A stretch of DNA of 63,369 nucleotides. Origin: Chloroflexota bacterium. GTDB taxonomy: Bacteria > Chloroflexota > Anaerolineae > Promineifilales > Promineifilaceae. Under the pieces are notes generated by a model. That model saw only the letters and a list, made by a program, of their open reading frames with translations, did no database searches and was not told the DNA's origin. Below, piece by piece: positions 7,162-51,744 of this stretch. Position 1 is the first letter of the stretch, and every line of letters begins with the position of its first letter. The stretch is taken from NCBI GenBank assembly GCA_018004935.1, contig JAGNBF010000038.1:1-63369 (forward strand), written 5' to 3'. The position numbers and the translations under genes were made by a program.

Positions 7162-7189
7162 AAGGCCTGTAAAAGATTAAGTTCCGTCA

Positions 7190-7223
7190 AGACCTGACAG
7201 GTTTTCGGAAACCTGTCAGGTCT
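7190..7223. repeat. Family E core hairpin
   Basis: Perfect inverted repeat: AGACCTGACAGGTTT, a short TCGG-centred loop, then AAACCTGTCAGGTCT. It is the same core as in the 82-bp elements at 49559-49640 and 51597-51678. A half copy (right arm) is at 9441-9465. Confidence 0.85.
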
Positions 7224-7665
7224 AAACCGGGAAGTTATATTTTTACAAACCCTAAGCCCCCCAATTTACCTTTCCCGGAAAGGACCGAACATGCACCACC
7301 CCCATAGCGTAACTTTGACCGCCTCTCTGGGTTCTTAACTGAGGGATGGGAGAAATATCGTTGCCTGGGACAAATACCTGCTTTCCCACCTATCCATCGC
7401 CTTGACAGGTTAGCCCCCTGTCACTAGAATCTTCATCGAGTTTGAGCCGCACCGCCCAACTTATTGAGCCACAGACCCTCTTAGGTGTTACATAACACAG
7501 GTGTTGCACAATCCGAGCCATCCGTTTTATCGTGCCTGTTGCCGGTAAAAGCGCGTGTCTGGAATCCCGTGGGTTGCGCCAAAAATTTGCTCGTAACTCT
7601 ACGATAATTCTTGCCACGCCAGCACTGAACACCAGGCAAAAAGTCCACGAGGGAGTAAAAATCGT

Positions 7666-9284: not shown

Positions 9285-9475
9285 GCAATATCTCCCAATA
9301 AATGACAGCAATTCTCAATTTGGTTTACTCCTGGCGTTGGCCGTTTTCGCGAGCGGGTGAACAGCCTGAAAAGCGGTTCTACGGCTTGGGCCATTTTTCG
9401 GGTGTGTTTTTGGCGATCAACGGTTTTTGAGAATGGCTGAGGTTTTCAGAAACCTGTCAGGTCTACCAGGTCATA

Positions 9476-18508: not shown

Positions 18509-21500
18509 TTAAAGGGTCTGGGAGCGGCGGCGCAGGATGACGGCGATGCCACTGGCAACCAGCAGGGCGAACATGATAAAAGGTAGGGAAGAGAACGCGC
18601 GGCCGCGTACTCCCACCAATGTCACATCCGTCGGCGTACCAACGATGATCTGTACCAGATCCGTATCTGTACCCGTGTCATCATCGGTGATTGTCAATGT
18701 GGCCGTAAACGTACCCGCCGTCTGATACAAATGGGTGGGTGTTAACGTGCCGGTGATAATCGTACCATCGCCCAGGTCCCAAACAATGTCATGGCTATCC
18801 AACGTGCCAGGGTCAATGAATGAACCGGCAAAGTTGACGACGGTGGCGAAGTCTACGGTTTGATCTGGCCCGGCGTTGACATCAGGATTGACATTGTTCA
18901 CCATCAGCGTTGTTGCATCAGCATCCGTGCCGGTGTCATCATCGGCGATGCCCACGGTGACGGTGTACGAGTCGGCGGGTGTGCCGGTAGGATCATCGTC
19001 CAGGTAGGTGTGGGTTTCGCTGATGGTGGTTGTGCCCGCACCATAGTTGAACGTTTCGGTGATGCCATCACCCCAATCCACGACGACGGCGAAGGTGTCT
19101 AGCACGCCGGGGTCAATGAGGTTAGCGGTGAGCGCGGCCGCGTCGTTTTCATTGACGCTCGCCACAGCCAGGCTATCCAGCACCGGAGCCACGTTGTCCA
19201 CGGTGATCGTCGTCGTCATCACATCCGTACCACCGTTATCATCGCTGAGGATGAGCGTCACGGTGTAGGTGTCAGACGGGGTAGCGGTGGGGTCGTCGTC
19301 CTGGAAGGTGTGGGTTTCGGTGAAGGCGGTGGTCGCGGCCGCGTAGTTAAACGTATCGGTGATACCATCCCCCCAATCCACCGCCAGGGTAAACGTATCC
19401 AACGGGCTGATCTCGTTGATGTTGCCGGTCAACGTCGCCGTATCCCCTTCATTCACACCGGTGGGGAAGGTTACATTGCTCAACGTTGGGGCCTGATTGT
19501 TGACCACTACGGTAACTGTCTGGGTAATCACCCCACTGTCATCGTCACTCAACGACAGGGCCAGACTGAAGTTCGCCAGGAGCAGTTGGCGCAGTAAGCC
19601 ATCATCCAGATATTGATGTGTCTCGATAAAGGCCGTTGTGCCTGCCGGATAGCTGAACGTTTCGGTGATGCCATCGCCCCAACCAACGGTCAGGGTAAAG
19701 GTGTCCTGCGTTCCCACTTCGGCGATGAAACCGGTCAGCGTCACCACCTCGGTTTCGGTAATGGCGGCGGTGGCGGTCACATTATTGAGTGCCGGAGCCA
19801 CATTGTTGACGGTGAGCGTCGCAGTGTCCGTGTGAGAACCGGTGTCATCATCTGTCAAGGTCAACGAAACGGTGTACGAGTCCGACGAGGTGACGGTGGG
19901 ATTGTCATCCAGGAACTGATGGGTTTCGGTGAAGGTGGTGGTTCCGGCAACATAGTTGAACGTCTGCGGAGCCGAACCATCACCCCAGTTGACCACCAGG
20001 CTAAAGGTGTCCAGCGTACCGGGGTCGGTAATCGTACCGGTCAGGGTAGCTGTATCGTCCTCATTGATGGGGGAACTAATGACCAGACTACCCAACGCCG
20101 GAGCCACATTGCTCACGGTCACGCTGGTGGTGTCGGTGTCGTTGCCCGTGTCATCATCGGTGAGCGACAGGCCGATGGTGTAGTTGTCGGACGGGGTGGC
20201 GGTGGGATTATCGTCCAGGTAGGTGTGGGTTTCACTGAAGCTGGTTGTACCCGCCACGTAGTTGAACGTCTGCGGGGCGGAACCATCACCCCAATCTACC
20301 ACCAGGCTGAACGTATCCAATGTGCCGGGGTCGGTGATCGTGCCACTTAGCGTGGTAGAACCGTTCTCGTTGATGTTCGTGGCGGCGACAGCCGAGAGGG
20401 TCGGAGCGACGTTGTTGACCGTTACGGAGGCACTGTCCGTATCGCTACCGGTGTCATCGTCCGTCAGGGTCAGGCTGATGGTGACATTGTCGGAGGGCGT
20501 ACCGGTGGGATTGTCGTCCTGGTAGGTGTGAGTTTCACTGAAGGTGGTGGTTGCGGCCGCGTAGTTAAACGTCTGCGGGGCCGAACCATCCCCCCAATCT
20601 ACCACCAGGCTGAACGTATCCAACGTGCCAGGGTCGGTAATCGTGCCACTCAACGTAACCGCGCTCCCTTCGTTGACATTGGCCGTGGCCGTCACCCCGG
20701 AGAGAGTCGGAGCCACGTTGCTGACGGTGATGGTGTCACTATCCGTGTCACTACCCGTATCATCATCCGTCAAAGTCAGGTTAATCGTCACATTATCCAC
20801 TGGTGTGCCGGTAGGATTGTCATCCAGGTAGGTGTGGGTTTCGCTGAAGCTGTTTGTGCCCGCCGCATAGTTAAACGTCTGCGGGGCCGAACCATCACCC
20901 CAGTTCACCACCAGGCTGAACGTATCCAACGTGCCAGGGTCGGTAATCGTACCGGTCAACGTGGTTGTGCCATTTTCGTTGACGTTGGTTGCGGCCACGG
21001 CTGAGAGCGTCGGCGCAACATTGCTGACCGTAAACGTTGTGTTGTCCGTATCACTACCGGTGTCATCATCGGTGAGCATCAGGCTAATGGTGTAATCGTC
21101 GGACGATGTGCCGGTAGGATTGTCGTCCAGATATTGATGGGTTTCGCTGAAGCTGGTTGTACCCGCCGCATAGTTGAATGTTTGCGGAGCCGAACCATCA
21201 CCCCAGTTCACCACCAGACTGAACGTATCCAACGTGCCAGGGTCGGTAATCGTGCCGGTCAAGGTTGTCGAGCCATTTTCATTGATGTTGGTGGCCGCTA
21301 AGGTTGACAGGCTGGGTGCCACGTTGTTGATGGTGATGGTGTCAGAATCGGTATCACTGCCGGTGTCATCATCAGCCAGCGTGAGGTTCACCGTGTAACT
21401 GTCCGATGCTGTGCCGGTAGGATTGTCGTCCAGGTAGGTGTGTGTCTCGCTGAAGCTGGTTGTTCCGGCGGGATAGTTTAACAACTGTGGCGCGGAACCA

Positions 21501-24500
21501 TCACCCCAGTCCACCGTCAGTGTAAACGTATCCTGTGTGCCCGGATCGGTGATTGTACCGGTGAGGGTTGCCGTGCCGTTTTCGTTGTGGGGTGAGGTGA
21601 TGTTGACACTGCTCAGGCTGGGGGCGATGTTGTTGACGGTGATTGTGGTGCTATCTGTGTCGTTATTGCCAAAGGTATCTGCCAGGGTCAGATTCACCGT
21701 GTAATTGTCGGACGCTGTGCCGGTGGGATTATCGTCCAGATAGGTATGCGTTTCGCTGAAGCTGGCCGTTCCTGCGGGGTAGGTATACACATCGGTAACA
21801 CCATCGCCCCAAACCACCGTCAGGGTGAAACCATCGCCATCAGAGTCTAGCATATTGCCCGTGAGGGTAGTTGAGCCATTTTCGTTGATGGGGCTGGTGA
21901 TAGCCACATTGGACAACACGGGGGGCTGGTTGCGAATGGGGGTGCTGTCACTGCCACAGTTGTCGGCGGGGTTCAGGTCGGTACCATTGGCCCCGTTGTC
22001 ACTGGCGCAGGCGGTGTTGTTGATGACGATGACACCAGGAGCGGGGTTGTCCACGGTGACGACGAAGGTGGCTGTACCGGAACCACCACCACCGGCCAGG
22101 GGACCAACGGTGAGGGTACAGACACTGCCCGCGTTGTTATTCGGTACGCAGACCCAACCGGCGGAACTGGCGGTAGGATTGAAGGTTGTGTTGGCGGGTA
22201 CGGTATCGGTTACGACGACGCCTATGGCCCCCTGGTTGCCTGCATTGGTGTAGGCGATGGTGTAGGTGATGTTTTCACCGGGCAGGAAGTCCAGACCGCC
22301 ATCGTCTTTACCAACCTGGAGATCGGGCGCGGCCGCAATCGGGGTCGTATCCGTATCGCTGTTGTTGCCAGGGGTGGGGTCGGCTCCATTCGTGCCGTCA
22401 TCGGCAATGGAGGCGGTGTTGCTGGTCTGCGTAACGCCTGCCGCTACGGGATTCACAACCGTCACAGCGAAGGTCGCCGTGCCTGTGCCGCCACCACCCG
22501 CCAACGACCCGACCGCCAGGGTACAGGTACTGCCTGCATTATTGTCCGGGACACAACTCCAACCGGCGGTGCTGGCCCCCGCATTGAAGACGGTATTGGC
22601 CGGAACGACATCCGTCAGGGTAATGCCGGTTGCGCCCTGGTTGCCGCTGTTGGTGTAGGTGAGGGTGTAAGCTATCACACCACCCGGTGTGCCAGTCGCC
22701 CCACCATCCGATTTGCTCAACGACAGGTCAGGCACAGCCGTCAGCGGCGTGGTATCGGTGTCGCTGTTGTCGGCGGGGGTGGGGTCGGTTCCGTTCGTGC
22801 CATCATCGGCGACCGAGGCGGTGTTGCTGATTTGTGTGACGCCGCCCGGAACCGGGTTGTTGACGGTCACGGCAAAGGTTACAGATGCCGGGCCACTGGT
22901 GACAGGCACAGCCCCGATGATGATGGTGCAGACACTCCCGGCGTTGTTATTGGGTACGCAACTCCAACCGGCAGTGCTGGCTCCGGCGTTGAAGGTGCTG
23001 TTGGCCGGGACGGTATCGCTGAGGGTCACACCTGTGGCATTCTGGTTGCCTACGTTGTCGTAGCTGAGGGTATAGGCCACCGTGCCGCCGGGTGTGGTCG
23101 TTGCGCCGCCATCATCTTTGGTGAGGGTCATGTCGGGCGCGGCCGCGACCGGTGTCGTATCGCTACTACTGTTGTTGGCAGGCGTGGGATCCGCCCCGTT
23201 CGTGCCGTCATCGGCGACTGAGGCGGTGTTACTGATTTGCGTGACACCACTGGGAACCGGATTCGCAACGGTAACGGCGAAAGTTGCCGAACCAGAACCG
23301 CCGCCGCCAGCGACAGCCCCAATTGCCAGGGTGCAGGTGCTACCCGCGTTGTTATCTGGCACACAACTCCATCCGGCGGTGCTGGCCCCGGCGTTGAAGG
23401 TGCTGTTGGCGGGGACGGTTTCACTGAGCGTGACGCCGCTTGCGCCCTGGTTGCCGTTGTTGGCATAGTTCAAGGTGTAAGCCACCGTACCGCCCGGTGT
23501 GGTTGTCGCACCACCGTCACTCTTGGTGAGGGTCATATCTGGCGTGGCTGTGACCGGGGTGGTGTCACTACTGCTGTTGTTGCCAGGCGTGGGGTCAGCC
23601 CCATTCGCGCCATCGTCGGCGATGGTGGCGGTGTTGCTGATTTGGGTGACACCGGCCGGAATCGGATTGATTACCGTAATAGCGAAGGTAGCCGAACCGG
23701 AACCGGTTGCCGCTACCGCACCCACGGCCAGGGTACAGGTGCTACCGGCGTTGTTGTCAGGGACACAACTCCAGCCTGCGGTGCTAGCTCCCGCGTTGAA
23801 GGTGGCGTTGGCGGGCACGGTTTCACTGAGGGTGACGCCCGTTGCCCCCTGGTTGCCGTTGTTGGCATAGTTGAGGGTATAGGCGACCGTACCACCGGGT
23901 ATGGTTGTCGCGCCGCCATCATTTTTGGTTACGCTGAGTTCGGGCGCGGCATTTACAGGGGTGGTGTCGGTGTCGCTGTTGTTGCCAGGATTGCTGTCTG
24001 GCCCATTTAGCCCATCGTCACCAATGGTGGCGGTGTTGGTGATCTGGTTGACACCGGCGGCGACAGGGTTGATCACCGTAACCGCATATGTGGCCGAGCC
24101 ACTACCAAATCCAGCCACTGCGCCAATCGCCAGGGTACAGGTACTCCCGGCATTGTTGTTGGGGGTACAGGCCCATCCGGCGGTGCTGGCCCCCGCATTG
24201 AAGGTGGTGTTGGCAGGGACGGTTTCGGTGATGACGACGCCGGTTGCGCCCTGGCCGTTTTGATTGGTGTAGACGAGGGTGTAGGCGACTGTGCCACCTG
24301 GGGCGACGGTCGCGCCACCATCGCTCTTCTCGATGGTGAGATCAGGGGTATTGGTGACGGGGGTGGTGTCGGTGCTACTGTTGTTGGCGGGGGTAGGATC
24401 AGCCCCATTATTGCCATCGTCACCGATGGTGGTAGTGTTGCTGATGCTTGGCCCACCGAGGTAGGGATCGTCTACCGTGACAACGAAGATGATGAAACCG

Positions 24501-27500
24501 TTGCCACCACCACCGCCAACCGTGCCAACGGTGATGGTACAGATGCTACCGGCGTTGTTGTTGGGGGCACAGCTCCATCCGGGATTGCTGGCGGTGGGGT
24601 TGAAGGTGCTGTTGGCCGGTACGGTATCGGTGATGACGACGCCGGTGGCGTTCTGGTTGCCGTTGTTGGCGTAGCTCAGGGTGTAAGTGATGAGGTCGCC
24701 GGGTTCAACGGTGATGCCGCCGTCGCTCTTGGTGATGGTGAAGTCGGGCGCGGCATTGATGGGGGTGGTGTCACTGCCGCTGTTGTTGGCGGGGGTGGGA
24801 TCGGCTCCATTTGTGCCATCATCGGCGACTGAGGCGGTGTTGCTGATTTGGGTGACACCAGCGGGAACCGGGTTGATTACCGTCACGGCAAAGGTGGCAC
24901 TACCCGTACCACCGCCACCGGCTACGGCTCCTACGGCCAGGGTACAGGTACTACCGGCGTTGTTATCGGGAATACAAGACCATCCGGCGGTGCTGGCTCC
25001 GGCATTGAAGATGGTGTTGACCGGGACAGTTTCACTGAGGACCACGTTGGAAGCGCCCTGGTCGCCATTGTTGGTGTAGCTCAGGGTGTAAGCGACGGTG
25101 CCACCGGGTGAGCTGGTTGCGCCACCATCACTTTTGGTGAGACTCAGGTCGGGGGTGGCGGTGACAGGTGTGGTGTCACTGCCGTTGTTGTTGCCAGGGG
25201 TAGGATCGGCTCCATTTGTGCCATCATCGGCGACGGTTGCGGTGTTGCTGATTTGGGTGACACCGGCAGGAACCGGGTTCACGACGGTTACAGCGAAGGT
25301 AGCCGAACCGGAGCCACCGCCACCAGCTACGGCTCCAATTGCCAGTGTACAGGTACTTCCGGCGTTGTTGTTGGGCACACAGACCCAACCGGCGGTACTG
25401 GCTCCGGCGTTAAAACTGCTGTTAGCGGGTACGGTTTCGGTCAGGTTCACGCCGGTTGCGCCCTGGTTGCCGTTGTTGGCGTAGTTCAGGGTGTAGGCAA
25501 CGGTGCCGCCGGGGGTTGTGGTTGCCCCGCCATCACTCTTGGTGAGGCTCATGTCCGGTGCGGCGTTGATGGGTGTGGTGTCACTATCGCTGTTGTTGGC
25601 GGGGGTGGGGTCGGCACCGTTCGCGCCATCATCGGCGACCGAGGCGGTGTTGCTGATTTGGGTCACACCGGCCGCAACCGGGTTCACGATGGTGACGGCA
25701 AAGGTGGCTGTTCCACCCGCGTTGCCACCGTTGACTGTGCCCACATTGAGCGTACAGACACTGCCCGCATTGTTATTAGGAACACAGGCCCAACCAGCGG
25801 TGCTGACACCTGCATTAAAGGTGCTGTTGGCGGGCACGGTGTCGGTGAGGGTGACGTTGGCGGCACCCTGGTTGCCGGTGTTGTTGTAACTCAGGGTATA
25901 GGCGACGACACCACCGGGTGTGCCTGTTGCGCCGCCATCACTTTTACTGATAGTCAGATCAGGGTTGGCGGTGATGGGAGTGGTATCGGTGCTGTTGTTG
26001 TTGGCCGGGGTGGGGTCAGTGCCGCCTGTGCCATCGTCGTCAATCGCGGCGGTGTTGCTGACCGCATCCAGACCGGCGGGGGCCGGGTTGTTGACGGTCA
26101 CGGCGAAGGTGGCAGAGGCCGCGGCCGCGCCCACATTCACATTCCCCACATTCAGCGTACACACACTGCCCGCGTTGTTATTGGGTACACAACTCCAACC
26201 GGCGGTACTGGCCCCAGGGTTAAAAGTGGTGCCAACTGGGACGGTATCACTTAACGTCACACCGCTGGCGTGTTGGTTGCCGGTGTTGGAATAGGTGAGG
26301 GTGTAGGGAATGACATCACCCGGCACGGCGGAGGGTATACCACCGTCTGTTTTGACAACATTCAGGTCGGGCGCTGCATCAATTGGTGTGCAGGTAGGAT
26401 TGGCCGCCCCCGCTACACTGGGGTCATCAGAAAGGACGTTACTGAAATTACTGCCGCTAATGGTGGCCTGGTTACAGGTGGTGTTGCTACCTGCCGGGAA
26501 TGGGTTTTGAATGACTACCTGGAAGGTGATGGTGGTTTGTTCGCCAAAGGGCATGGTGAAGGGACCAACGGTTGTGATGGCCTCGGGGGCGCGGGCGGGT
26601 AGGGTGTCATCGTTGGTGGGGGTGGGGGGTGCGGCCGCGTCAAGAATCGCCGCACCCGGCTCCGGTGTCTCTTCAGCAATAGGAGTTGCCGAGGGGCTGG
26701 GTTCAATTCCTAAAGTTGGGTAGGGCACAGGTGGAACAGATGAACCCTCAGAGGTAGCCCCTTCTTCAGAAGATATAGCCGGATTGCCTGAATCGGTGGT
26801 TTCAGATGGATTGATCTCGGCATCTGGGCTAGAGATGTAAACCGGGGCAAATGTTGGCAGTGGCGGATTGGTACAGGTGCCATTAAACGTGGGGACGCTA
26901 CCGGCGACGGTGGCCCCACTATTGGCTCCAGCTAGATTGGCAACGGATGATTGGGTGATCTGTCCCACTGCCGGAGCCGCCCCAATCGTGAAATTAATTA
27001 CGCCGGGGGATCCCAAGGCTCCGTTGTCGTTACCCGTAAGATGATAACAACTGTTGGCTTCATCCTGAGTGATGAGAACGATTTCATCTTCATTCGCATC
27101 TACATCAATGTTGATCAGGTCGTTATCAACAAAACGCACCTGTCCTCTGGGGGTAAATACGCCTAAATCTTCATCTGAGAAATAGCGGAAAGCCTCAGAG
27201 GTGGTTTCTCGGAAAGTGTTACCTTCTACGGTCAGGTATAAGTTGCCCTGATGATCCCGGTTCAGGACCTGCATCCCATCATCCCCGCGGCTGTTCAGGT
27301 CAAAACTGTTGTTCAGGACAGCAATGGTCCAGGTGCGGTTTTCGCCGCCGGTAAACCCATCCAGGCTCAGGCGAACACCATCCCCAAGTCCGGCCGCGGG
27401 ATCCATGCTGACGGTGTTGCCGCTAATGGTGCCGTTGAGATTACCACCGGTTGTTCCGGCTGTGGCTATAATAATCCCTTCGATGGTGTTGGTGAGGGTA

Positions 27501-29728
27501 TTATTGAGGATATCAAATGTAACTAATGCGCCGTTTAAGCTGATGACTTCAATGCCACCCCCCGAGGGAAAATTATCTGGTCCCCCGCCATTGGTGGAGG
27601 TGATGGTGGTGATATTGGCATCATTGGTTCCGCTACTGCCACCCCGGAAGGAGACAGAGACGTATTCGATATTGTCAAAGCTGGTGTTGGTTACATTCAG
27701 TTGAATGCTGGCCGTACCGTTGGAGTCAACCGCGATAGCTGTTCCGCCAAACGTATCGTTGTTATCGGCAAAACTACTACCATTGTTGATATTAATAGTC
27801 AGGGATCCGGAGTTGTTGTTTAGATTTAAGGCACGCTCGTAGAAGTTGGTGACATCTACGTTGTTCAGTGTCAGGATTCCGGTTACGTTAGCCGCCCCTG
27901 CGGTGGAAAACGAAAGGGCGTCTTCTTCATCCGCATTACCAACATTATTGAGGGTGACATTGTTAAGGGTCAGGGTATTGACCAACGTGCCGGAGATGCC
28001 ATGTCGGCCGGTGTTGTTAATTGCCATTGAGTTGAAGGTGATGTTGCTGACATTGTTCAAGAATATGCCATCACCACTGGTATTTTGAATCGTTCCCCCC
28101 GAACCGGCACCGCCTGTTCCGGCAATGGTGAAGAAGCCGCCGGTATTGTTTTCCAGATAAATGCCGTTGACTGGCCCATTGACAGTGGCACTGGTGAAGG
28201 TAACGCCGCTGGCCCCTAGAGTCATGTTGCGGATGTTGATGGCTGTGCCGGTGGTGGTGGTGGCGGTGTTGGTCCCGGTGACGTTGAGTGTGCCACCGCC
28301 GGTGGCGGAGAAGGCGGCATTTGTGCCGGTATTCAGCGAGAGGCCACCGGAGAATGTGATGGTGGCGCCAGTGTTGTTGGTTAGCACAATACCGGTAGCG
28401 GTATTGGTGATGGCCCCACTAAAGGTGGCAGTGCCCCCGGTTTTGTTTTGGATGTTGACGGCTCTGGCGGTGGTGTTGTTGATGGTACCGGCGTAGCTGA
28501 TACCAGCCGTACCGGCATTGACAACGAAGGCATCACTGGAACTGCCGCTGAGTGCCCCGGTTCCCAGGTTGAGGGTACCATTGACGGTGGTCAGGGTGAC
28601 GTTGTTTGTGCCACCGGTGGCGGTAACGGCCGTGAAGGTAGCGTTGGCTGTACCGGTTGTGAGGGAGATGCCCCCGTTATTAGTGTTGATGGTGACGAGT
28701 TGCAAATCGAGGGTGCCGAAGTTGTTGCCAAAGAGGGCGAAGTTCGCGGCCGCGCCCGTGTTGCCAAGCGTTACGCCTTGAATGGTATTGTTTTGGGCCA
28801 GGGTAACATCATGCCCCGCCCCGTTGATAAGGGTGGGGTTGGTGCTAACCGCCGGAAAGGTTGTGCCGGTGGGAGGGGTGAGGCCAGAACAGGTCGCCAG
28901 ATTGGCTCCATGTCCACATAACCTTTGCCCATTTTTAAGCACGAAACCGGCGGTGTAGCTGGCTCCCCGGTTATAAATAAAGATGATGTCATTGATGAAA
29001 CTGGCGGTTTGGGCGGAAGAGAGTGCCTGGAACGGATCAAGGGATGTACCTGTACCCGCACCGGCGGCGTTACTGTCTACCCACCAGATGCGGTTAGCCA
29101 CGTTAAAGGTGACTGTGCCGGTATCGGTGAGGCCATGATTGTCGGTAACGGTGTAGGTAAAGGTATCGTTACCGACGAAACTGGCCGGGGGGCCATAGGT
29201 GAAACTGCCGTCACCATTCAGGGTAACAGTACCACCATTGGTCGTGGTGCAGGGGGCGCAGGAAGCGGTTAAGGCTCCGCCATCGGGGTCTACGTCATTG
29301 GCCAACAACCCTGTGCCGAGGGGGTGGGTGATGTGGGTATTGCCAATGGCGTTGTAGGTGTCATTCACCCCCATGGGGGTGGCCCGCAGAGAACCGGCGA
29401 CAACGGTTACTTCTGTGTCATCGGTTACATCAGTGAAGAGGGTATTGGTGCCGTCAGTATCCCCGCTGTTCGCCACCACGATACTGTATTGCAGGGTATC
29501 ACCCGGGTCGGCATTGGTATCGCCGTCCACATCAATGAACAGGGTATCGGTTTTGGTGGCGGTGATGGTGACGGCCTGAGGGGCAGAGGCGAAGGTTTTG
29601 GCCGCACGGGCTAGCGGGCTACTGGCATTGACCAGGCCAAACATGACCAGTGATAACACAAGGGCCAGTAGTAGCGGTGGCAGTGAATGAAGAGTTTGGC
29701 GTAGGAGTGTATTTTTTTTGTGAAACAT
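18509..29728 (-). CDS. Giant surface protein with beta-helix, 11 DUF11 and 11 PKD-like repeats
   Basis: 3739 residues. N-terminal signal peptide (about 1-43), a DUF11-like strand region, an Ig/cadherin-like domain with GLLANDVDPDGG, a right-handed beta-helix rich in N-N-T and G-T-N repeats (about 210-900), and a Pro/Thr/Ser/Glu linker. Then come eleven DUF11 domains of about 135 residues (about 1119-2596), eleven PKD-like domains of about 97 residues (about 2600-3699) with WGDG and ETHTYLDD motifs, and a C-terminal hydrophobic helix with basic tail RRRSQTL. This is the plan of a cell-surface adhesin anchored by its C-terminus. I chose ATG 29728 with GGGAGA upstream; 29806 would put 26 odd residues before the signal. 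It ends the tail-collar/GNAT/DUF6916 run, 89 bp after its neighbour, and may be co-transcribed with it. Confidence 0.9.
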   Translation of the reverse strand: MFHKKNTLLRQTLHSLPPLLLALVLSLVMFGLVNASSPLARAAKTFASAPQAVTITATKTDTLFIDVDGDTNADPGDTLQYSIVVANSGDTDGTNTLFTDVTDDTEVTVVAGSLRATPMGVNDTYNAIGNTHITHPLGTGLLANDVDPDGGALTASCAPCTTTNGGTVTLNGDGSFTYGPPASFVGNDTFTYTVTDNHGLTDTGTVTFNVANRIWWVDSNAAGAGTGTSLDPFQALSSAQTASFINDIIFIYNRGASYTAGFVLKNGQRLCGHGANLATCSGLTPPTGTTFPAVSTNPTLINGAGHDVTLAQNNTIQGVTLGNTGAAANFALFGNNFGTLDLQLVTINTNNGGISLTTGTANATFTAVTATGGTNNVTLTTVNGTLNLGTGALSGSSSDAFVVNAGTAGISYAGTINNTTARAVNIQNKTGGTATFSGAITNTATGIVLTNNTGATITFSGGLSLNTGTNAAFSATGGGTLNVTGTNTATTTTGTAINIRNMTLGASGVTFTSATVNGPVNGIYLENNTGGFFTIAGTGGAGSGGTIQNTSGDGIFLNNVSNITFNSMAINNTGRHGISGTLVNTLTLNNVTLNNVGNADEEDALSFSTAGAANVTGILTLNNVDVTNFYERALNLNNNSGSLTININNGSSFADNNDTFGGTAIAVDSNGTASIQLNVTNTSFDNIEYVSVSFRGGSSGTNDANITTITSTNGGGPDNFPSGGGIEVISLNGALVTFDILNNTLTNTIEGIIIATAGTTGGNLNGTISGNTVSMDPAAGLGDGVRLSLDGFTGGENRTWTIAVLNNSFDLNSRGDDGMQVLNRDHQGNLYLTVEGNTFRETTSEAFRYFSDEDLGVFTPRGQVRFVDNDLINIDVDANEDEIVLITQDEANSCYHLTGNDNGALGSPGVINFTIGAAPAVGQITQSSVANLAGANSGATVAGSVPTFNGTCTNPPLPTFAPVYISSPDAEINPSETTDSGNPAISSEEGATSEGSSVPPVPYPTLGIEPSPSATPIAEETPEPGAAILDAAAPPTPTNDDTLPARAPEAITTVGPFTMPFGEQTTITFQVVIQNPFPAGSNTTCNQATISGSNFSNVLSDDPSVAGAANPTCTPIDAAPDLNVVKTDGGIPSAVPGDVIPYTLTYSNTGNQHASGVTLSDTVPVGTTFNPGASTAGWSCVPNNNAGSVCTLNVGNVNVGAAAASATFAVTVNNPAPAGLDAVSNTAAIDDDGTGGTDPTPANNNSTDTTPITANPDLTISKSDGGATGTPGGVVAYTLSYNNTGNQGAANVTLTDTVPANSTFNAGVSTAGWACVPNNNAGSVCTLNVGTVNGGNAGGTATFAVTIVNPVAAGVTQISNTASVADDGANGADPTPANNSDSDTTPINAAPDMSLTKSDGGATTTPGGTVAYTLNYANNGNQGATGVNLTETVPANSSFNAGASTAGWVCVPNNNAGSTCTLAIGAVAGGGGSGSATFAVTVVNPVPAGVTQISNTATVADDGTNGADPTPGNNNGSDTTPVTATPDLSLTKSDGGATSSPGGTVAYTLSYTNNGDQGASNVVLSETVPVNTIFNAGASTAGWSCIPDNNAGSTCTLAVGAVAGGGGTGSATFAVTVINPVPAGVTQISNTASVADDGTNGADPTPANNSGSDTTPINAAPDFTITKSDGGITVEPGDLITYTLSYANNGNQNATGVVITDTVPANSTFNPTASNPGWSCAPNNNAGSICTITVGTVGGGGGNGFIIFVVTVDDPYLGGPSISNTTTIGDDGNNGADPTPANNSSTDTTPVTNTPDLTIEKSDGGATVAPGGTVAYTLVYTNQNGQGATGVVITETVPANTTFNAGASTAGWACTPNNNAGSTCTLAIGAVAGFGSGSATYAVTVINPVAAGVNQITNTATIGDDGLNGPDSNPGNNSDTDTTPVNAAPELSVTKNDGGATTIPGGTVAYTLNYANNGNQGATGVTLSETVPANATFNAGASTAGWSCVPDNNAGSTCTLAVGAVAATGSGSATFAITVINPIPAGVTQISNTATIADDGANGADPTPGNNSSSDTTPVTATPDMTLTKSDGGATTTPGGTVAYTLNYANNGNQGASGVTLSETVPANSTFNAGASTAGWSCVPDNNAGSTCTLAIGAVAGGGGSGSATFAVTVANPVPSGVTQISNTASVADDGTNGADPTPANNSSSDTTPVAAAPDMTLTKDDGGATTTPGGTVAYTLSYDNVGNQNATGVTLSDTVPANSTFNAGASTAGWSCVPNNNAGSVCTIIIGAVPVTSGPASVTFAVTVNNPVPGGVTQISNTASVADDGTNGTDPTPADNSDTDTTPLTAVPDLSLSKSDGGATGTPGGVIAYTLTYTNSGNQGATGITLTDVVPANTVFNAGASTAGWSCVPDNNAGSTCTLAVGSLAGGGGTGTATFAVTVVNPVAAGVTQTSNTASIADDGTNGADPTPGNNSDTDTTPIAAAPDLQVGKDDGGLDFLPGENITYTIAYTNAGNQGAIGVVVTDTVPANTTFNPTASSAGWVCVPNNNAGSVCTLTVGPLAGGGGSGTATFVVTVDNPAPGVIVINNTACASDNGANGTDLNPADNCGSDSTPIRNQPPVLSNVAITSPINENGSTTLTGNMLDSDGDGFTLTVVWGDGVTDVYTYPAGTASFSETHTYLDDNPTGTASDNYTVNLTLADTFGNNDTDSTTITVNNIAPSLSSVNITSPHNENGTATLTGTITDPGTQDTFTLTVDWGDGSAPQLLNYPAGTTSFSETHTYLDDNPTGTASDSYTVNLTLADDDTGSDTDSDTITINNVAPSLSTLAATNINENGSTTLTGTITDPGTLDTFSLVVNWGDGSAPQTFNYAAGTTSFSETHQYLDDNPTGTSSDDYTISLMLTDDDTGSDTDNTTFTVSNVAPTLSAVAATNVNENGTTTLTGTITDPGTLDTFSLVVNWGDGSAPQTFNYAAGTNSFSETHTYLDDNPTGTPVDNVTINLTLTDDDTGSDTDSDTITVSNVAPTLSGVTATANVNEGSAVTLSGTITDPGTLDTFSLVVDWGDGSAPQTFNYAAATTTFSETHTYQDDNPTGTPSDNVTISLTLTDDDTGSDTDSASVTVNNVAPTLSAVAATNINENGSTTLSGTITDPGTLDTFSLVVDWGDGSAPQTFNYVAGTTSFSETHTYLDDNPTATPSDNYTIGLSLTDDDTGNDTDTTSVTVSNVAPALGSLVISSPINEDDTATLTGTITDPGTLDTFSLVVNWGDGSAPQTFNYVAGTTTFTETHQFLDDNPTVTSSDSYTVSLTLTDDDTGSHTDTATLTVNNVAPALNNVTATAAITETEVVTLTGFIAEVGTQDTFTLTVGWGDGITETFSYPAGTTAFIETHQYLDDGLLRQLLLANFSLALSLSDDDSGVITQTVTVVVNNQAPTLSNVTFPTGVNEGDTATLTGNINEISPLDTFTLAVDWGDGITDTFNYAAATTAFTETHTFQDDDPTATPSDTYTVTLILSDDNGGTDVMTTTITVDNVAPVLDSLAVASVNENDAAALTANLIDPGVLDTFAVVVDWGDGITETFNYGAGTTTISETHTYLDDDPTGTPADSYTVTVGIADDDTGTDADATTLMVNNVNPDVNAGPDQTVDFATVVNFAGSFIDPGTLDSHDIVWDLGDGTIITGTLTPTHLYQTAGTFTATLTITDDDTGTDTDLVQIIVGTPTDVTLVGVRGRAFSSLPFIMFALLVASGIAVILRRRSQTL
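18630..21930 (-). repeat. Tandem PKD-like coding repeats (about 290-bp unit)
   Basis: About ten units of 285-295 bp plus a final PKD domain inside the giant gene. Each unit encodes L-S-x-V, N-E-N/G, TDPGTxDTFSL, WGDGSAPQTFNY, ETHTYLDDNPTGT, LTDDDTGSDTD. Neighbouring units are nearly identical at DNA level (for example around 20240-20300 and 20860-20930), so recombination and assembly collapse are both possible. Confidence 0.9.
21940..26372 (-). repeat. Tandem DUF11 coding repeats (about 400-bp unit)
   Basis: Eleven units of about 135 codons inside the giant gene, each beginning near PDLxLxKSDGGATxTPGG, with a central STAGWSCVPNNNAGSxCTL and ending ADDGTNGADPTPANN. Two conserved cysteines per unit may form an intradomain disulphide. 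Units vary mainly in a Gly-rich loop. Octamer GCGGCCGC is nearly absent from the centre of the array (23147-26120). Confidence 0.9.
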
Positions 29729-29817
29729 GTGATTCTCCCGATGAAATCTGAGTGGATGGAATTGGGGATGGGCAGAATTGAACAGGCGGGTTTCCCAGTG
29801 ATACAAGTTTTGTTTTG

Positions 29818-49515: not shown

Positions 49516-49558
49516 ACAGCTATTCTAACGCAGAATTGAGGAAAGGGGAGTGAGGTAG

Positions 49559-49640
49559 GAGTATATCCACGTTTTGTGGGAGGCCTGACAGGTTTTAGAA
49601 ACCTGCCAGGTCTGTGCCCCACGATTTATGGGTGTACTCA
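49559..49640. mobile_element. 82-bp miniature inverted-repeat element, family E, copy 1
   Basis: Ends GAGTATATCCA and TGGGTGTACTCA, an inner hairpin (GCCTGACAGGTTT / AAACCTGCCAGGT) and the shared words CGTTTTGTGGG and GTGCCCCACGATTTATGGG. It is flanked by a perfect 8-bp direct repeat TGAGGTAG (49551-49558, 49641-49648). Same length as the copy at 51597-51678. Confidence 0.88.
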
Positions 49641-49669
49641 TGAGGTAGTAATTCTCAATTTGGCCTGAA

Positions 49670-49912
49670 CGTCTAAAAATGCCGAGGCCGCCCAGTCGTA
49701 AAACGGGCCGGGCTATGGTTACGAAGGTCGTTGGCCTACTGTTTTAGCCCCTAGTAGTGCGACAGACAAGATTTGTCGGTTGGAAGGTGGTGGCACGGTC
49801 AGGAGACCGGCCACAGCTATTCGACGGAATAAGTTTGTTGAACTACTAGGGCCTGGTACTGATAGCCCGGCGGTTTGACCGCCGGATGGATTAACGGAAC
49901 GTTTATCGTTCA
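49670..49912 (-). mobile_element. Family B element, inverted, interrupted copy
   Basis: Reads in reverse the interior of 53536-53777: GGGCCGGGCTATGGTTACGA, then GTTGGCCTACTGTTTTAGCC, and CCCGGCGGTTTGACCGCCGG. Between GTTTTAGCCC and TAGGGC it is broken by the element at 49751-49849. The empty site is preserved at 53536-53777 as GTTTTAGCCCGTAGGGCTGG (read in reverse). Confidence 0.75.
49751..49849. mobile_element. 99-bp inverted-repeat element, nested
   Basis: Terminal repeats CTAGTAGT (49751-49758) and ACTACTAG (49842-49849). The interior carries a reversed family D segment (CGGTCAGGAGACCGGCCACA). It is inserted in the family B copy, as shown by comparison with the uninterrupted copy. Confidence 0.75.
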
Positions 49913-50015
49913 AACTGAGAATTGCGGGGAGTGAGAGACATGGCTCTCGCTCGTCCCTTTAAGCTCAAGCTCTCCGTTCCCGTGGCTAAAATCGCCAGGA
50001 ATTATGCGTCATTCC

Positions 50016-51350
50016 TTATTGTTCTGGTTCTAGCCGGTTGAATAGGGATGTGCTGTACTGAATGGCTTTCAGGCGGCGATGTCGTTCCCAGGCAAAGTAG
50101 ACGGTGTCCAGGGCCATACGCCCATACTGACCCATTGCCTTGAGGAAGTGGCCTACCCCGGTGAGGCCGGAAGCGGAGCCATAACGGCGGCGCAGGTAAT
50201 CTTGGCCTGGGAAACAGTAGGTGGTTAAATCTAAAACCCGAATGGGGCGTAGGATGAAGGCCCCATTGGTGATGAGCAGAAAGTGCCACCATTTACTTTG
50301 CCGTTCCCCCTGGTATTGGGCGAGGGTGTACTCTACCATTTTGTTCATGGCGAAACGGGTCACGCGGCCGCATGCTTCCCCCCGTAATTCTGCCAATACC
50401 CAGTCAGGTACGGGCGTTGCCAGAAATTCCTGGCATACCTGTAAAACCGGGCCGGTCATCTCTACAATGCCCCATTGTTGGGAGAGCCGCACAATTTGTT
50501 GCCAGGCCGCTTTATCAGGCGTTAATTGTTTAATGGCTTCAGCGATATCTACAAAGTACATGAGCATTCCATCCCCCAGGATGATGCGGGCCAGTTCGGG
50601 ATGTTGCCAGGTGCTGGGCAGATAGACTGCATGTTTAACCAGGTGGATGATGAGGGTCAGGATGAAATCGGGTAGTGCCTGGTTGCGCACGGGCAGACCC
50701 AGAAGTGTGCCAGGGGTGGCCCGATCCATCATGGCTTCGTAATTGATTGTCTGGCGGGTGAGGGGATGATCTAAGGCCCAATGGATTTCGTACCAGACGC
50801 GTAAATCAGCGGTGGAGCGTTGTTGGTGCAGGTGGTGGCGTTCGTAATAGGCATCTTGCATGAGGTTGGGCCAGAAGGCGTCTACCTCTATCTGTTTCAG
50901 GAGTTCCATCACGGCGGCCACATCGCGATGGCGCACCAGGAGATCTATATCGCCGCCAGGGCGCATGGCTTCATCACCGTAGAGGTTGAGGCAGGTGATC
51001 AGCCCTTTGATGATAACGATTTCTAGCCCGGCCGCGGCCGCGAGGGGGAGAAACCGTTGTAGTGATTCTTTGAACCATTGGGCACGCAGGCGATATAACG
51101 CGGCCGCGTCGTCTAAGGCCGTTCTGGCTATCGCGGGTAGGCGATCAAGCTGGCCTGTTTCCTCTAGTACTCGGGGTAACAAGGTGTGCATGCGGTTTTG
51201 CACCCCGACTGTGACCAGCCGAGGCCAATCCAGATTGTCCGGGGCTATCAGGGGAGATGGTTCTCGCCATTGGTTGACACATTGCCAGAGAAACGTTTCC
51301 TCAGGAGTTAGCGAAGCTCGTTTTATCATAGGGTCAGGTGATTGATACAT
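50016..51350 (-). CDS. Nucleotidyltransferase-fold protein (NTP_transf_5 type)
   Basis: 444 residues. The central core AAGLEIVIIKGLITCLNLYG followed by MRPGGDIDLLV matches the NTP_transf_5 (PF14907) nucleotidyltransferase-like family, where GGDIDLLV supplies metal-binding Asp residues. The rest is helical. Members are common in surface polysaccharide and exopolysaccharide clusters, fitting the nearby flippase, but the transferred group is unknown. ATG 51350 used; 51329 is also possible. Three octamers are present. Confidence 0.8.
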   Translation of the reverse strand: MYQSPDPMIKRASLTPEETFLWQCVNQWREPSPLIAPDNLDWPRLVTVGVQNRMHTLLPRVLEETGQLDRLPAIARTALDDAAALYRLRAQWFKESLQRFLPLAAAAGLEIVIIKGLITCLNLYGDEAMRPGGDIDLLVRHRDVAAVMELLKQIEVDAFWPNLMQDAYYERHHLHQQRSTADLRVWYEIHWALDHPLTRQTINYEAMMDRATPGTLLGLPVRNQALPDFILTLIIHLVKHAVYLPSTWQHPELARIILGDGMLMYFVDIAEAIKQLTPDKAAWQQIVRLSQQWGIVEMTGPVLQVCQEFLATPVPDWVLAELRGEACGRVTRFAMNKMVEYTLAQYQGERQSKWWHFLLITNGAFILRPIRVLDLTTYCFPGQDYLRRRYGSASGLTGVGHFLKAMGQYGRMALDTVYFAWERHRRLKAIQYSTSLFNRLEPEQ

Positions 51351-51458
51351 AATTGCGGTATCTTCTCGTAACTATAGCATTTACGATTGACGATTTTAGA
51401 TTTACGCTTGGGAACACGCTGGTTAACGTCTCACAAAACCCAGAATCTTTATCTTAAG

Positions 51459-51552
51459 GTAAGCGTTCAGTCCCTCTGGTGCGAAAGCCTTCCCAAGGTT
51501 TCGGGAAAGGTGTTGACCAGTGGAACAAACCTTGGGAAGGCTGAACGCTTAC
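51459..51552. mobile_element. Family B element, short copy with long hairpin
   Basis: 94 bp. Ends GTAAGCGTTCAGT and CTGAACGCTTAC, interior palindrome AGCCTTCCCAAGGTTT / AAACCTTGGGAAGGCT. It is flanked by a perfect 7-bp direct repeat TCTTAAG (51452-51458, 51553-51559). The interior differs from copies 34312-34469 and 53536-53777, so only the ends define the family. Confidence 0.8.
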
Positions 51553-51596
51553 TCTTAAGCTCTATAGTTACGCCACGCCAGGGTAAACGTTCACTC

Positions 51597-51678
51597 GAAT
51601 ATACCCACGTTTTGTGGGAGACCTGACAGGTTTCTAAAACCTGTCAAGTCTGTGCCCCACGATTTATGGGTATACTCT
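51597..51678. mobile_element. 82-bp miniature inverted-repeat element, family E, copy 2
   Basis: Ends GAATATACCCA and TGGGTATACTCT, inner hairpin GACCTGACAGGTTT / AAACCTGTCAAGTC, and shared CGTTTTGTGGG and GTGCCCCACGATTTATGGG. It is flanked by a perfect 8-bp direct repeat GTTCACTC (51589-51596, 51679-51686). Confidence 0.9.
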
Positions 51679-51744
51679 GTTCACTCTATCCATAACAAGA
51701 GTTTTGTTCTCTGAGCGAACTCTCCGGAAATTGTTAGAATCTAG

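What the first reader, a model, noticed from the sequence alone, without database searches (positions are those of the whole stretch)
49551..51686. 82-bp mobile element with two copies, each with its own perfect 8-bp target duplication
49559-49640 and 51597-51678 have equal length, shared ends and core, and different flanking duplications (TGAGGTAG and GTTCACTC). This is strong proof of transposition of a very small element. The core AGACCTGACAGGTTT hairpin occurs again without ends at 7190-7223 and as a half at 9441-9465.
Basis: seen in the sequence. Interest (0 to 1): 0.75.

Follow-up and report, generated by a model that had tools for sequence, protein, structure and literature searches.

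The report
Tiny promoter-seeking transposon in Chloroflexota
It is an 81-base, gene-less jumping element, present in dozens of copies, that seems to borrow the enzyme of a bacterial Mutator-like transposon (ISKra4 group) and, like that group, mostly lands about 16 bases upstream of gene promoters.

Summary
27 of 55 two-ended copies have an exact 9-bp duplication, 11 more have 8 of 9, and uninterrupted paralogous sites exist. It is a MITE with ends GAGTATA...TATACTC around a 33-bp hairpin.

The partner is very probably an ISKra4-group (prokaryotic Mutator-like) IS. In relative G029, near-identical ends (20 of 23 each side) flank a transposase N-terminus and, on another contig, an ISKra4 C-terminus. 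That IS's middle is unassembled, and no ISKra4 transposase is in the own assembly.

The MITE shows the promoter-upstream targeting published for ISKra4-group ISs: 41 of 55 copies have a sigma70-like promoter whose -35 starts 15-18 bp from an end, against a mean of 7.3 at control offsets. Neither window copy does.

The hairpin core is a separate dispersed repeat and also the core of a second MITE family here. No ISKra4-type MITE was found in the held papers.

The parts
49559..49639 (+). MITE copy 1, 81 bp
49550..49558 (.). left target duplication of copy 1 (GTGAGGTAG; 8 of 9)
49640..49648 (.). right target duplication of copy 1 (ATGAGGTAG)
49581..49613 (.). core hairpin of copy 1
51597..51677 (+). 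MITE copy 2, 81 bp
51588..51596 (.). left target duplication of copy 2 (CGTTCACTC; 8 of 9)
51678..51686 (.). right target duplication of copy 2 (TGTTCACTC)
51619..51651 (.). core hairpin of copy 2
7163..7252 (.). member of a second MITE family (3-bp TAA duplication) with the same core hairpin at 7190-7223
9441..9465 (.). decayed half of the core hairpin

Best explanation
The feature is a non-autonomous miniature transposable element (MITE), 81 bp long, with two ~23-bp imperfect inverted ends around a 33-bp hairpin. Shown: many copies, exact 9-bp target duplications, paralogous empty sites, and a sharp peak of sigma70-like promoter sequences whose -35 box starts 15-18 bp beyond the element end. 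Inferred: it is mobilised in trans by a DDE transposase of the ISKra4 group (p-MULT 4, prokaryotic Mutator-like), which binds the ends, makes the 9-bp staggered cut and is steered to sites just upstream of promoters, presumably by contact with the transcription-initiation machinery as proposed in print for TnGBS. The inner hairpin is a captured, independently dispersed palindromic repeat and probably not needed by the transposase, because MITEs with like ends in other genera carry other cores.
For: 9-bp duplications: 27 of 55 exact, 11 of 55 with one mismatch, 0 of 2970 mispaired controls with 0-1 mismatch. Empty paralogous sites. Near-identical ends on an IS in G029: left end followed by a transposase N-terminus on four contigs, right end preceded by an ISKra4 C-terminus; 20 of 23 identity on each side, IS ends 19 of 23 to each other. 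A distant relative of the N-terminus is an ISKra4-like protein, 202.7 bits. Promoter-like site with -35 at 15-18 bp: 41 of 55 copies against a control mean of 7.3, max 16; 45 of 110 flanks in 45 sequence clusters against mean 7.4, max 17; matrix-free counts agree. Same address at 3 of 5 junctions of the G029 IS and 5 of 7 MITEs of other genera. ISKra4-group targeting, 8-9-bp duplications, 18-39-bp IRs with terminal C are in PMC3942029.
Against: No ISKra4 transposase in the own assembly. The G029 IS is in pieces on separate contigs and its two ends were not seen on one molecule. Both window copies are among the 14 of 55 without a promoter at the expected place. 12 of 55 copies have 3 or more mismatches in the 9-bp flanks. 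The promoter matrix is an E. coli one from memory; no transcription start was measured. ISLre2, which also targets promoters, was not searched in the own genome.
Confidence: 0.87

Rival explanations
1. It is a MITE of another DDE family with 8-9-bp duplications (IS256, ISLre2, IS1, IS4 and so on); the likeness to the G029 IS ends is convergent or reflects only distant kinship of the ends.
For: No ISKra4 transposase in the own assembly. ISLre2 elements also make 8-9-bp duplications and target promoters (PMC3942029), and the ISLre2 profile weakly matches the same protein (35 bits).
Against: IS256 has no match in the own genome. Identity of 20 of 23 at both ends to an IS whose C-terminus matches ISKra4.
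Confidence: 0.1
2. It is a selected regulatory or RNA hairpin, or a REP-like repeat copied by recombination, and not a transposon.
For: The strand folds far better than shuffles (z -9.4), sits near promoters, and its core alone is widespread.
Against: Exact 9-bp duplications, empty sites, insertions with either end towards the promoter, and IS-like ends. No Rfam match in the 2.6-kb region.
Confidence: 0.02
3. It is an ISKra4-type MITE, but the promoter association results from selection (insertions survive only between genes) and not from targeting.
For: 48 of 55 sites do not lie in a spanning ORF of 150 aa or more.
Against: The peak is only 4 bp wide (15-18 bp) and absent at every other offset; general intergenic survival would not give a fixed distance.
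Confidence: 0.05

Closest known systems
ISKra4 group of p-MULT 4 (prokaryotic Mutator-like ISs; PMC3942029, passages and one section read)
   Same: End sequence like that of an ISKra4-type IS in a relative, 9-bp duplications, terminal C, promoter 15-18 bp from the end, promoters on both sides with near-symmetrical ends.
   Different: No transposase gene, 81 bp, and a hairpin core that the G029 IS left end lacks; no full IS in the own assembly.
TnGBS / ISLre2 (p-MULT 3; PMC3942029)
   Same: Insertion 15-17 bp upstream of -35, 8-9-bp duplications.
   Different: Those are whole ICEs/ISs, mostly with the right end facing the promoter; here either end may face it, the right more often (27 to 10). 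Not tested for sequence kinship.
Bacterial MITEs in general (recalled)
   Same: Short, palindromic, multi-copy, mostly between genes, no coding capacity.
   Different: A defined promoter address, and a core hairpin shared with an unrelated MITE family.
REP palindromes (recalled; PMC3733652 seen in a search listing only)
   Same: The 33-bp core alone is a short dispersed palindrome.
   Different: The whole element makes 9-bp duplications; no link to a RAYT was tested.

Membership tests
MITE | terminal inverted repeats, no coding capacity, many copies | tested here: met
   81 bp, inverted ends, 55 two-ended copies
MITE | target-site duplication and empty sites | tested here: met
   27 of 55 exact 9-bp duplications; paralogous empty sites
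MITE | ends match an autonomous element | tested here: met
   20 of 23 on both sides to the G029 IS, whose ends lie on separate contigs
ISKra4-group-derived element | partner transposase of the ISKra4 family | tested here: inconclusive
   C-terminus at the G029 right end matches NF033572, E 2.1e-9; interior unassembled; none in the own assembly
ISKra4-group-derived element | 8-9-bp duplication, 18-39-bp IRs, terminal C | tested here: met
   against PMC3942029
ISKra4-group-derived element | insertion upstream of sigmaA promoters (several members of the group) | tested here: met
   41 of 55 copies, 45 of 110 flanks; both window copies fail
ISKra4-group-derived element | transposition by a circular intermediate | not testable with these tools
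   needs an experiment
IS256 (p-MULT 1) | IS256-type transposase in the genome | tested here: not met
   PF00872: 0 matches, control genomes ring
ISLre2 (p-MULT 3) | ISLre2 transposase with these ends | not tested
   no genome search left

The most novel reading that the evidence does not exclude
Two linked novelties are not excluded. (a) The MITE is a mobile regulatory cassette: a Mutator-like transposase's promoter address delivers a long DNA palindrome to a fixed place ~16 bp upstream of the -35 of some 40 promoters, where it could insulate or modulate them as a set. (b) The 33-bp hairpin is a modular unit with its own means of spread, captured by unrelated transposon ends (ISKra4-type, and a family with 3-bp duplications), so that MITEs of different families share one core while their terminal bases change.
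Probability: 0.3. Interest if true: 0.75.

Novelty: new variant of a known kind. Interest (0 to 1): 0.55.

Why it matters
Promoter-seeking transposition by prokaryotic Mutator-like enzymes has been described for whole ISs and ICEs. Here a gene-less 81-bp element shows the same address in dozens of places, so the terminal bases plus a transposase in trans are probably enough for it, and one genome offers about 40 sites at which to measure what a hairpin 16 bp upstream of -35 does to expression. It also makes it testable how one hairpin became the core of different transposon families.

Tried and rejected
IS256 as the partner was rejected because there was no Transposase_mut match in the own genome. 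An autonomous copy in the own genome was looked for among unpaired GAGTATANCCA sites; 14 extra own-genome places were fetched, and a scan of the loci then held found no IS-sized element with 9-bp duplications (only the 20 loci and earlier fetches were scanned). An end-pattern scan of IMG/VR gave 0. The GTDB scan gave 10 stretches; nine are Chloroflexota MAGs, and the tenth (Pseudomonadales, L179) shows no second end in the 400 bp read and looks like chance. The 25-aa N-terminal peptide gave no profile match. Delimiting the ends of 12 ISKra4-matching loci worked for 1 of 12 (L212, GGGTGCATTA ends, 9-bp duplication), and none of these 12 has GAGTAT ends paired with a duplication. A test for inverted flanks around free core hairpins has little power, since one of three MITE positive controls failed it; it is not relied on. 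Rfam: nothing.

Rows dropped before counts: 2 of 57 two-ended candidates (L142 with 13 end mismatches, L153 with 9) were left out of all 55-copy counts. About a dozen one-ended or decayed copies lie outside the 55. A first tally counted copies on both strands twice and is not used.

Full report
What is there. The window holds two 81-bp copies, 49559-49639 and 51597-51677, 89% alike, each flanked by a 9-bp repeat with a mismatch in its first base. Among 55 two-ended copies from the genome (7.98 Mb, 229 contigs), 27 have exactly 9 duplicated bases and none has 10. Eleven more have 8 of 9, 5 have 7 of 9 and 12 have 6 or fewer. Of 2970 pairings of one copy's left flank with another's right flank, none reaches 8 of 9. 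End patterns allowing 3 mismatches occur 55 (right) and 60 (left) times, and the reversed control patterns 0 times.

Transposition. Joined flanks of copy L032 match uninterrupted repeats elsewhere (L081 92% over 115 bp, L071 95% over 77 bp, L018 96% over 69 bp), which contain the 9-bp target once or nearly so. L021 gives a similar result at lower identity. The 43 copies of 81 bp taken for the consensus average 94.7% identity to it and 7 are identical to it, so the family moved recently. Some copies are interrupted by other sequence (L081, L085, L086, L087, L089).

Anatomy. The sequence folds as one near-continuous hairpin (-26.1 kcal/mol as DNA, z -9.4). The ends are GAGTATAYCCACGTTTTGTGGG and, read inwards from the other side, GAGTATACCCATAAATCGTGGGG. 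The centre is AGACCTGACAGGTTT-3 nt-AAACCTGTCAGGTCT. The loop is TAG in 21 and its reverse complement CTA in 19 of 55 copies (12 did not fit the loop pattern), so the core occurs in both orientations.

The partner. IS256 is absent. The pattern GAGTATNNCANNNNNNYGTGGG occurs in 6 of 57 related genomes. In G029 four contigs carry GAGTATAGCAACGTTTTGTGGGG, followed by an ORF starting MARPMSRKERKATFMKQAEQMFEEL, all running into the contig end. Its weak relatives in other families of the class include a 484-codon frame, L194, that scores 202.7 bits with NCBIfam ISKra4 (cut-off 205). The ISKra4 profile then found, at the edge of another G029 contig, a transposase C-terminus (E 2.1e-9) followed by a stop and CCCCACGATTCGTGGCTATACTC, the matching right end. 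IS and MITE ends agree at 20 of 23 on both sides, and the two IS ends at 19 of 23. The profile hits 29 of 61 relatives searched but not the own assembly. The interior of the G029 IS is missing too, so loss of multi-copy sequence in assembly is a likely reason, but that is inference. The window's own organism is therefore a member of the Chloroflexota near these, by inference.

Promoter address. PMC3942029 (passages, section 11) reports that TnGBS, ISLre2 and several ISKra4-group elements insert upstream of sigmaA promoters, and that 13 such ISs with 83-100% complementary IRs have promoters on both sides. I tested this on the MITE. Scores for a sigma70-like promoter (matrix recalled) read outwards from each end show a peak 4 bp wide, with -35 starting 15-18 bp from the end. 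41 of 55 copies score 4 or more on at least one side, against a mean of 7.3 (max 16) over control offsets 22-94 in the same flanks. By flank it is 45 of 110 against mean 7.4, sd 3.3, max 17, and the 45 fall in 45 different sequence clusters. Without any matrix, TTGA begins at offset 16 in 11 and at 17 in 6 of 110 flanks, and TATAAT-like boxes begin at offset 39 in 15 and at 40 in 4; every other offset has 0 to 3 for either motif. The right end alone faces a promoter in 27 copies, the left alone in 10, both in 4 and neither in 14. Of 45 promoter-bearing flanks 27 have a codirectional ORF start 50-350 bp out, against 18 of 63 others. The G029 IS shows the address at 3 of 5 junctions, and MITEs of other genera at 5 of 7. 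Both window copies are among the 14 without such a promoter. Copy 1 abuts another repeat (49650-49923), which may have displaced it.

The core. The 33-34-bp hairpin is not specific to this MITE. With the MITE as query 46 of 98 genomes (own included) match; the listed matches outside the own genome and G008 cover essentially the core, a sharply bounded unit in unrelated flanks. In the stretches of the own genome held here (about 377,000 distinct 31-mers) 30 cores fitted a pattern; reading them, those outside this MITE lie in a second family with ends GGGCCTGTAAAAGATTAAGTTCC.../...AACCC and mostly TTA or TAA duplications, or a variant of it, including window 7163-7252. G008 carries the same 81-bp architecture but GAGTATGGCA at both ends. 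G044, G013 and G014 carry like ends around other cores. Ends and core thus vary independently. A text search for two 12-mers of the core found 4 papers, none on bacterial repeats by title and abstract.

Novelty. ISKra4 with MITE gave 4 papers and with 'miniature inverted' 2. I read passages of one (PMC9208149), which describe no ISKra4 MITE; of the others I saw only the listing. Further searches showed none in their listings, and PMC3942029 holds no word beginning 'MITE' (its one 'nonautonomous' passage was not read). MITEs and promoter-targeted ISKra4 elements are each known; a promoter-addressed MITE of this group was not found in this library, which lacks most subscription journals.

Noticed in passing
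window 7163-7252; L045:572, L068:334, L070:4179, L073:3335: A second MITE family with the same hairpin core, GGG-type ends and TTA/TAA duplications; a variant with other ends is at L072:971 and L151:2102. The likeness to IS5-type ends is recalled, not tested.
   Followed up: partly
window 51459-51552: A short element with 12-bp perfect inverted ends GTAAGCGTTCAG, an inner hairpin AGCCTTCCCAAGGTTT and a 7-bp TCTTAAG repeat on both sides; IS66-like by recall. A like element interrupts a copy of the 81-bp MITE in L081 with CTAAAACC on both sides.
   Followed up: partly
window 49650-49923: A 274-bp repeat with 13-bp inverted ends AATTCTCAATTTG directly beside copy 1; the same end lies beside several other copies (L008, L065, L032).
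   Followed up: no
relatives, for example L109-L136: The 33-34-bp hairpin stands alone with sharp borders in many genera of the class; how it spreads is unknown.
   Followed up: partly
window 18509-29806, minus strand: An open reading frame of 3765 codons with many long antisense frames, which suggests a repetitive giant protein.
   Followed up: no
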